Positions 10,725-53,159 of a DNA stretch of 64,000 bases are shown piece after piece; the first letter of the stretch is position 1; each line of letters starts with the position of its first letter. Source of the stretch: Paenibacillus sp. BIHB 4019 (GTDB lineage Bacteria; Bacillota; Bacilli; Paenibacillales; Paenibacillaceae); assembly GCF_002741035.1 (NCBI RefSeq), contig NZ_CP016808.1:4140501-4204500 (forward strand), written 5' to 3'. Made by a program: the position numbers and the translations under genes. The notes under the pieces were generated by a model. That model saw only the letters and a list, made by a program, of their open reading frames with translations. It had not been told where the DNA came from and did no database searches.

Positions 10725-10848
10725 TCGTGGCTGAGAGCACCGTGGCTGAGAGCACCGTGGCTGAGAGCGCTGTTACTGAGGTCACTGTTGCTGAGAGCGC
10801 TGTTACTGAGGTCACTGTTGCTGAGATCACTATTGCTGATGGCGCGCA
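10725..10848 (+). repeat. 15-bp minisatellite
   Basis: About seven imperfect copies of a 15-bp unit of the type GCTGAGAGC(A/G)C(C/T)GTG/T, arranged partly as a 30-bp higher-order repeat (GAGAGCGCTGTTACTGAGG twice). Open in more than one frame (AESTV-like pentapeptides in one), but no frame has a convincing start. It abuts the four-module element on its left. Confidence 0.75.
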
Positions 10849-10873
10849 GCTCGGGAATACTCACTGTTTTTTT

Positions 10874-11055
10874 GAGGACCGAGGTTCCGCTATTGTGGCT
10901 TATTATTCGATTCCAGGCGGTAAGCGGACAGGAAAGCCGCTATGGCTCTCCTCATCCCGTCAAAATGGCTTTTGTCAGCACATTAGCTGCTCCTGAGTCC
11001 GCAGACAGTGCCTAATCCCGTGATTTTGTGTAAATAGCGGCTGCTGTGTCCACCA
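10874..11055 (+). repeat. Four-module inverted element, copy 1
   Basis: Four copies of a ~21-bp module: forward at 10876-10894 and 10924-10943 (GCGGACAGGAAAGCCGCTAT), reverse at 10982-11002 (ATTAGCTGCTCCTGAGTCCGC) and 11032-11051. Start-to-start spacings are ~50, 58 and 50 bp, the same as in the copy at 43.33-43.51 kb. Modules 1/4 and 2/3 can pair into a nested hairpin. Confidence 0.75.
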
Positions 11056-11156
11056 AATATCCTTGTGTCTTTGTGCTAGGAGCAAACCCGCGAAACAAAG
11101 AGTCCCACGGTGCCTTTGGTAAGTAGATTCACATTCACAAGGGGTGGCATTAAATT

Positions 11157-43213: not shown

Positions 43214-43262
43214 AAGGCAGCCGTTTGTCATGAGCAAGGAGAATGACAAACGGCTGCCTTAT
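43214..43262 (+). terminator. Strong perfect-stem terminator
   Basis: An 18-bp perfect inverted repeat (AAGGCAGCCGTTTGTCAT and complement). The 3' side runs into the next dispersed repeat, whose TTATATTT serves as the T-rich tail. Confidence 0.8.
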
Positions 43263-43322
43263 ATTTCACCCGCGAAACGGCAGCTTTGCCGCCAGAGGAT
43301 GGCGCCAGCCGTTTACGCCTGG
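43257..43322 (+). repeat. Dispersed palindromic repeat, copy 6 (GC half only)
   Basis: CTTATATTTCACCCGCGAAACG, then GCAGCTTTGCCGCCAGAGGA, then GGCGCCAGCCGTTTACGCCTG. Nearly identical to the copy at 20.0 kb and likewise lacking the left part of the AT-rich half. Confidence 0.8.
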
Positions 43323-43327
43323 TCTAG

Positions 43328-43508
43328 GCGGACTCAGCAGCAGCTATTTGCCCATTTTAGGCGATTTTGGCGGATAAGCGGACAGGAAAGCCGTTAATGA
43401 GGTTTTTCTCGCTATAAATGATCATAATGGGGGCGATTAGCGGCTTCTGAGTCCGCGAACCTGCTCATGCCCCTTTATCTGCAACAAATAGCAGCTGCTG
43501 TGTCCGCC
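43328..43508 (+). repeat. Four-module inverted element, copy 2
   Basis: Modules: forward 43328-43349 (GCGGACTCAGCAGCAGCTAT) and 43378-43398, reverse 43436-43456 (ATTAGCGGCTTCTGAGTCCG) and 43486-43508. Spacings 50, 58, 50 bp, identical to the copy at 10.87-11.05 kb, while spacer sequences differ. Confidence 0.78.
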
Positions 43509-43739
43509 AAATTTCTATTTACTTTTCTGTTGTTACTATAGCCTTCATCAGTGCCCGTCCACGCTACACTCGATCCGTTTGAGCTCCTTTATTGAAAGTC
43601 AAAAAATACTTCCTCATCTTTAATTTGAAATATCCTCTTGGAAGAGACATTTAAATAAACCTATTTTATCTATCTGATGGAGCTTTATTTAATGACAGTA
43701 AAAAAGGATAAAAGTTTAAAAATTATCCTAAGTCATTGA

Positions 43740-49800: not shown

Positions 49801-49818
49801 TGAAAAAATGATTCAAAT

Positions 49819-50002
49819 GGAACGAGGTGCCTTTGCGCACGTCAAAGGGTAACAGGGAATCGGGTGCAAATCCCGAGCGGTCCCGCCACTGTAATCGGGG
49901 AGTTTTCCTTCACCAGCAGGAGTCACTTGGCCTAAGCTTTAGGGCAGCCAGGGAAGACGAAGGAAAATAATGATCCGCTAGCCAGGAGACCTACCTCGTT
50001 CC
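49819..50002 (+). promoter_or_regulatory. Cobalamin riboswitch upstream of cbiMNQO
   Basis: Closing stem GGAACGAGGT / ACCTCGTTCC. Conserved elements in order: AAAGGGTAACAGGGAATC, GGTGCAAATCCCGAGCGGTC, CCGCCACTGTAA, and the B12 box GCCAGGAGACCTACC. Binding of adenosylcobalamin should stop expression of the cobalt transporter. Confidence 0.95.
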
Positions 50003-50097
50003 AGCACCACATTGCCTTCGCGGAAAGGATAGGTGTACGAACGAAAGCGATTGCTACCAGTCTGTTTGCTGGCGCAACCGTCTATTTCTGCGTACAC

Positions 50098-52905: not shown

Positions 52906-52947
52906 ATAAATAAATAAATAAATAAAGAACGACCAACTAAATAGCGA

Positions 52948-53120
52948 GGAATAGGGTGCTCTTGCGTAACGTCTTGAGCTTAAAAGGGAAGTCCGGTGCA
53001 ATACCGGCGCGGTCCCGCCACTGTAACAGCGGAGTTTTGCGCAATAAAGCCACTGGCATGATGCCGGGAAGGCGAGCGCAGCGATGATGATGCTGGAGCC
53101 AGGAGACCTGCCTTATTCTA
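52948..53120 (+). promoter_or_regulatory. Cobalamin riboswitch upstream of metE
   Basis: Closing stem around GAATAGGGT / GCCTTATTC. Core elements AAAAGGGAAGTCCGGTGCAA, CGGCGCGGTCCCGCCACTGT, and the B12 box GAGCCAGGAGACCTGCC. With B12 present the B12-independent methionine synthase is not needed, so this is the expected target. Confidence 0.95.
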
Positions 53121-53159
53121 TACACTGCAGTACCTACGGGAGATAGGGAGGTGTTAAAG

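What the first reader, a model, noticed from the sequence alone, without database searches (positions are those of the whole stretch)
10874..11055. Two-copy element of four ~21-bp modules in + + - - order with exactly conserved spacing
Modules like GCGGACAGGAAAGCCGCTAT occur twice forward then twice reversed here and again at 43328-43508. Start-to-start distances are 50, 58 and 50 bp in the second copy and the same, within 2 bp for the trimmed first module, in the first copy. The spacers between modules have diverged. Conserved distance with diverged spacer suggests selection on geometry: a nested hairpin (modules 1/4 and 2/3 pairing) or a protein that binds four sites in phase. I do not know a named element with this plan.
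Basis: partly seen in the sequence, partly recalled or inferred. Interest (0 to 1): 0.7.

Follow-up and report, generated by a model that had tools for sequence, protein, structure and literature searches.

The report
Nuclease with a phased four-palindrome repeat
The two odd four-part DNA elements are copies of a dispersed repeat whose four evenly phased palindromes also sit right behind a gene for a DNA-cutting, DNA-binding type of protein in many Bacilli, which suggests an undescribed partnership of an enzyme and its repeat.

Summary
Both window loci carry four ~21-bp modules in + + - - order with identical steps, and the own genome holds dozens more (58 inner-pair matches, 4 for the reversed control). 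The geometry persists where spacers and even module sequences are unrelated. Modules are imperfect palindromes with centres 50-51, 62 and 50-51 bp apart, roughly 5, 6 and 5 helical turns. The array belongs to a ~214-aa protein: 99 of 109 homologue loci scored have one just behind the gene (at least seven loci counted twice). The own genome has one such gene, outside the window. Its protein is modelled as a VSR/I-Bth0305I-like nuclease domain plus winged helix. Module base 4 (G/A) tracks winged-helix residue 184 (Arg/Gln), but on only one or two evolutionary switches. Dispersed copies differ in presence between relatives; in orthologous copies modules diverge half as fast as spacers. Nested hairpins get little support. 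Best reading: the cognate four-site platform of a sequence-specific nuclease, dispersed as gene-less copies, working like REPIN-RAYT with an unrelated enzyme. Binding, cutting and mobilisation are inferred, not shown.

The parts
10868..11060 (+). Copy 1, whole four-module element (close to the own-genome consensus)
   Evidence: homology to G031 begins at 10868, to G010 at 10867, to G060 at 10868
10874..10894 (+). Copy 1 module 1
   Evidence: score 24
10924..10944 (+). Copy 1 module 2
   Evidence: score 26
10982..11002 (-). Copy 1 module 3
   Evidence: score 30
11033..11053 (-). Copy 1 module 4
   Evidence: score 30
43322..43514 (+). Copy 2, whole four-module element (diverged lineage of the family)
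43328..43348 (+). Copy 2 module 1
   Evidence: score 31
43378..43398 (+). Copy 2 module 2
   Evidence: score 27
43436..43456 (-). Copy 2 module 3
   Evidence: score 32
43487..43507 (-). Copy 2 module 4
   Evidence: score 29

Best explanation
The window elements are gene-less, dispersed copies of a cis element that belongs to a ~214-aa chromosomal protein with an N-terminal VSR/DUF559/I-Bth0305I-like nuclease domain and a C-terminal winged helix (the own genome's one such gene lies outside the window, at G000:C1:3656500-3657141). Shown by sequence: the family, its fixed geometry, its place behind the gene, the change of module sequence from clade to clade of the protein, and presence or absence of dispersed copies between relatives. 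Inferred: the winged helix binds each imperfect palindrome as a dimer; four dimers about 5, 6 and 5 helical turns apart lie on roughly the same face and, by the two-fold symmetry of + + - -, can fold the element into one complex in which modules 1-2 meet modules 3-4; the nuclease cuts or nicks at or near the element. Such breaks multiply the array in tandem beside the gene and, in some lineages, seed copies elsewhere, so the gene serves its repeats in trans as RAYT is proposed to serve REPINs. Whether copying is by excision and insertion or by break repair is unknown.
Against: No binding, cutting or movement was measured. No target-site duplication or sharp insertion end was found, gain and loss were not polarised. 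The residue-base match rests on two changes on the tree, one not excluded. 10 of 109 loci have no array at the threshold. In most congeners with the gene the GCGGAC-type pair count is at background, though their own modules differ and were not counted; in G083 the array is tandem at the gene with hardly any copies elsewhere. In G031 the gene is interrupted while 43 pair matches exist. Half-speed evolution of modules in dispersed copies would also fit a regulatory or architectural role.
Confidence: 0.62

Rival explanations
1. Architectural or regulatory sites: the protein is chiefly a DNA-binding protein that autoregulates and bridges DNA at four-site platforms, and copies spread by ordinary recombination. 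The nuclease domain has another or no cutting role.
For: Modules are held in place in orthologous dispersed copies; both window copies are kept at corresponding places in three relatives; phased palindromes suit a bridging complex.
Against: The array lies behind the gene, not at its promoter, in 73 of 80 loci; the nuclease motif is invariant; presence/absence differences and tandem copies point to DNA breaks or movement.
Confidence: 0.22
2. A selfish homing-type or genome-conflict system: the nuclease recognises arrays or array-less alleles and the array is the immunity or drive part rather than a mobile unit.
For: Best structural match is a homing endonuclease catalytic domain; arrays in tandem beside the gene.
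Against: Dispersed arrays carry no gene (own genome has one gene and dozens of arrays), which a homing gene would not explain.
Confidence: 0.1
3. Nested-hairpin RNA or a transcription terminator / small RNA.
For: Inverted order of modules; 9 of 500 shuffles reach the covariation score.
Against: 70.6% against 70.5% of cells paired; one compensated pair of 20; no Rfam family; strict step lengths with unrelated spacers are not needed for hairpins.
Confidence: 0.04
4. Ordinary miniature transposon of an unrelated transposase.
For: Dispersed copies with presence/absence between relatives.
Against: The array accompanies the nuclease gene in 99 of 109 loci with clade-specific modules; no target duplication seen.
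Confidence: 0.02

Closest known systems
REPIN-RAYT (PMC3116915 and PMC3733652, passages read)
   Same: Palindromic modules in inverted order, conserved distance with less conserved spacer, dispersed copies without a gene, partner gene single per genome and next to cognate repeats.
   Different: Partner is modelled as a PD-(D/E)XK-type nuclease with winged helix, not an HUH tyrosine transposase; four modules, not two; no GTAG tag; array on the 3' side of the gene; no clear hairpin covariation.
VSR / EDxHD homing endonucleases (I-Bth0305I) and DUF559 proteins
   Different: Fused to a winged helix and tied to a four-palindrome array; I know of no such array for these families (recall).
Multi-site transposon ends (Tn7, Mu; recalled)
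   Same: Several protein sites in inverted order at two ends.

Membership tests
REPIN-RAYT | partner is an HUH/Y1 tyrosine transposase | tested here: not met
   The gene next to the arrays has no Y1_Tnp match in Pfam and its N-domain models as VSR-like. A RAYT elsewhere in the own genome was not searched for.
REPIN-RAYT | GTAG-tagged (or CGTC-tagged) palindromic REP | tested here: not met
   Module profile is NCGGA-N7-TCCGN-TATT; tags as described in PMC3733652 (abstract passage).
REPIN-RAYT | unit is two inverted REPs forming a hairpin with compensatory changes | tested here: not met
   Four modules with 50/78/50 steps; 70.6% vs 70.5% shuffled pairing, covariation score reached by 9 of 500 shuffles.
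REPIN-RAYT | repeats dispersed without the gene, gene single and beside its repeats | tested here: met
MITE of a DNA transposon | terminal inverted repeats with target-site duplication | tested here: inconclusive
   Inverted ends present; no duplication recognisable at nine empty stretches, junctions diverged.
VSR / EDxHD homing endonuclease fold | catalytic-domain fold | tested here: met
VSR / EDxHD homing endonuclease fold | cuts DNA | not testable with these tools
   D71, E84, H91 invariant in 47 rows; activity not measured.
DUF559 (PF04480) | reaches the curated cut-off | tested here: inconclusive
   No DUF559 match in the main clade; of six distant relatives two are above and one equals the cut-off.

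The most novel reading that the evidence does not exclude
A new class of self-spreading DNA in Bacilli: a ~190-bp array of four phased palindromes is assembled by a VSR-like nuclease with a winged helix into an intasome-like complex and copied to new sites without any known transposase, integrase or reverse transcriptase; distant relatives run the same plan with different palindromes, so enzyme and array form orthogonal co-evolving pairs.
Probability: 0.4. Interest if true: 0.93.

Novelty: categorically new. Interest (0 to 1): 0.86.

Why it matters
It would be a second, independently evolved partnership of an enzyme with its dispersed repeat beside REPIN-RAYT, with a nuclease of the homing-endonuclease/VSR fold, and would explain a repeat family of dozens of copies in Paenibacillus-like genomes. 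Natural enzyme-array pairs with different palindromes give ready tests of DNA recognition and of how a four-site protein-DNA complex works.

Tried and rejected
Nested hairpin: folded and counted on 37 own-genome copies, little support. Known RNA family: none at the window elements. Mere duplication of two loci: rejected. Protein-family filing of the main clade: Pfam, NCBIfam, PADLOC and PHROGs give weak winged-helix-type matches and no nuclease assignment; a PDB sequence search with the domain profile found only two serine hydroxymethyltransferases at E 0.93. The full-length fold search saw only the winged helix, so the nuclease domain was modelled alone. Foldseek's own top hits for it were R2 retrotransposon proteins (E 5e-4 and 1.4e-3, low TM-scores), while VIA-align ranked I-Bth0305I first. 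A palindrome-only scan of eight distant relatives was too weak: only L208 (51/62/51) and L213 (51/51/51) stood above their gene-body controls clearly; for the others the repeat-based scan stands. A 2-mismatch count of inner modules was swamped by chance (342 against 422 for the control). L050's flanks lie 9 kb (G031) and 42 kb (G010) apart, so that site was useless as an empty site. One of 16 control loci scored 90 (L086), an array of GATCTA-type palindromes at 51/88/51; not explained. The intergenic placing of all dispersed copies was not tested.

Print: searches listed no paper that describes this system; the library holds open papers only, and beyond passages of two REPIN papers I saw listings.

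Rows dropped: alignments A1 and A2 use 37 of 40 places (L012 and L029 lack one outer module, L026 has one module). L022 could not be oriented automatically and was set by hand. L116 was left out of A3 (partial), L146 out of A4 (stop in frame), L117 out of the tree (register uncertain), L168 out (contig ends). In one search the downstream stretch searched was longer than the gene body it is compared with.

Full report
WHAT IS THERE. The window is G000:C1:4140501-4204500 of a 7.25-Mb chromosome. Eight modules lie in the window as two + + - - sets with identical steps. A scan that assumes no module sequence puts the same two loci first (97, 86; third 65). In the own genome 40 places match copy 2 (40 of 99 candidates scored); 36 of 40 show four modules and the inner step is 78 in 39 of 39. 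The element has a direction; after orientation 37 copies align over ~193 bp, with modules far better kept than spacers. Counts of GCGGAC-N66..68-GTCCGC against the reversed control are 58 vs 4 (own), 62 vs 3 (G010), 43 vs 3 (G031), 26 vs 1 (G060), 17 vs 3 (G004) and 9 vs 2 (G051); the other 45 of the 51 genomes have at most 6.

THE GEOMETRY OUTLASTS THE SEQUENCE. In three further congeners the same plan occurs with unrelated spacers and other module interiors: three full sets in G002 (50/78/50 twice, 50/77/50 once), one full set in G040 (50/77/50), and three-module sets in G039 (two) and G040 (one) with the same steps. In the free-spacing search of the own genome one listed element has an inner step of 79 and one of 77, so the step is tight but not absolute.

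THE PARTNER GENE. In G002 the three arrays surround a 215-aa frame. Homologues occur in 50 of 51 genomes of the genus searched, one of them in the own genome at C1:3656500-3657141, whose own array begins about 45 bp behind its stop codon. A scan free of module sequence finds an array scoring >= 78 at 24 of 30 homologue loci fetched from the genus. In named genomes (Paenibacillus, Cohnella, Fontibacillus, Bacillus, Virgibacillus, Oceanobacillus, Aquibacillus, Halalkalibacter, Evansella and others; 308 relatives found, best 80 kept) it finds one downstream of the gene in 73 of 80, upstream in 13 of 80, and inside the gene in 1 of 80, an error of the interval used for L172. Pooled and put in register: 99 of 109 loci; inner step 78 in 87, 77 in 9 and other values in 3 of 99; median distance from the end of the matched coding stretch to module 1 of 60 bp, 5th to 95th percentile -4 to 359 (at least seven loci counted twice). 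A sweep of the outer step from 30 to 70 on 79 loci gives scores >= 75 in 36 at 50 and 10 at 51, and in one locus each at 33, 38 and 46. Controls: 0 of 79 locally shuffled stretches and 1 of 16 chance loci reach 78.

MODULES ARE PALINDROMES THAT FOLLOW THE PROTEIN. Over the 99 systems the module is NCGGA-N7-TCCGN with a TATT tail, self-complementary about position 9 (positions 3/15 pair in 83%, 4/14 in 69%, 2/16 in 63%, 1/17 in 52%, 5/13 in 44% of modules). Centres are thus 50-51, 62 and 50-51 bp apart in the great majority, near 5, 6 and 5 helical turns. Module starts differ by clade: GCGGAC, ACGGAC, ACGGAA, ACGGTT, ACGAAC, ACGAAT, ACGAAA. Winged-helix residue 184 is Arg with G4 in 79 and Gln with A4 in 14 of 99 loci; the other six are Pro-A, Arg-A (L117, register uncertain), two Asn-G, Cys-G and His-G. 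In 65 proteins under 85% identity it is 50 and 9, other six the same kinds; it is the strongest of the residue-position associations scanned. On a tree of 74 nuclease domains the G/A state needs two changes and one is not excluded, so this is suggestive, not replicated. Relatives at about 30% identity, and one in another family of the phylum, carry arrays of quite different palindromes. Of eight such loci scanned with wide freedom of spacing, six have an array downstream (L206, L207, L208, L210, L212, L213), one upstream (L211), and one is not clear (L209, 76 against a next best of 68).

DISPERSED COPIES. Both window copies are at the corresponding place in G010, G031 and G060; no such place was found for them in G004 and G051. 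They are therefore old. Of 13 other own-genome copies whose flanks were sought in G010, G031 and G060, five are absent from a site with both flanks present in one to three of these genomes: nine fetched stretches without element, with 9 to about 400 other bases between the flanks; three fetched stretches hold the element. Gain or loss is thus going on, but no target duplication is recognisable and direction was not polarised. In ten comparisons of orthologous copies modules differ at 67 of 839 sites, spacers at 167 of 947 and flanks at 319 of 2037 (Fisher, modules vs spacers, p = 1e-9; sites and comparisons are not independent, flanks counted only where alignable). Around the gene the array is often tandem: five copies 371-395 bp apart in G083, with only weak matches elsewhere in that genome. 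Some own-genome copies have longer shared arms. In G031 the gene is interrupted (two partial matches in different frames) although 43 pair matches exist.

HOW IT MOST LIKELY WORKS. Sequence shows a fixed multi-site element, its gene, and their joint change. From the fold and the Arg/Gln switch I infer that a dimer reads each palindrome as double-stranded DNA. From phasing and two-fold symmetry I infer one compact complex of the four sites. From the conserved nuclease site, the tandem copies and the presence/absence pattern I infer that cutting at or near the array multiplies and sometimes disperses it. The last step is the weakest; an architectural or regulatory role is the main rival.

NOVELTY. 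It resembles REPIN-RAYT in what it seems to do (passages of PMC3116915 and PMC3733652 read) but fails tests of membership: enzyme fold, tag, number of modules, hairpin covariation. The print searches named under Tried and rejected found no description. I rate it categorically new because neither the enzyme-array pairing nor the four-palindrome plan belongs to a kind I could find or recall; if movement in trans is proven, one may equally call it an analogue of REPIN-RAYT.

Noticed in passing
window 43258-43322: A separate ~64-bp dispersed repeat just upstream of copy 2, with some 40 matches listed in each of G010, G031 and G060 (listing capped) and a few in G051.
   Followed up: no
window 10740-10840: Short tandem repeats of the GCTGAGAGC type directly upstream of copy 1; homology to three relatives is lost here and resumes exactly at the element's left edge.
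   Followed up: partly
window 49808-50012 and 52937-53129: Two cobalamin riboswitches.
   Followed up: no
L061 against L056: At corresponding places G010 lacks ~230 bp, including the end of a coding frame, right up to the element's left edge; a deletion that abuts the element.
   Followed up: partly
L086:1039 (G045:C14): A four-module array of GATCTATTTTTTAGATC palindromes (51/88/51, score 90) turned up in a control locus; its partner gene, if any, is unknown.
   Followed up: no
L208 (G083:C1:2764139-2765865): Five tandem arrays 371-395 bp apart behind a ~30%-identity relative of the nuclease gene.
   Followed up: partly
L050 1266-1384 and similar: Some own-genome copies share extra arms to about -230 and +90 bp around the core, so the dispersed unit may be longer than 190 bp.
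   Followed up: partly
G031:C15:178251-178891: The nuclease homologue is interrupted (two partial matches in different frames) next to an array pair at 178987-179065.
   Followed up: no
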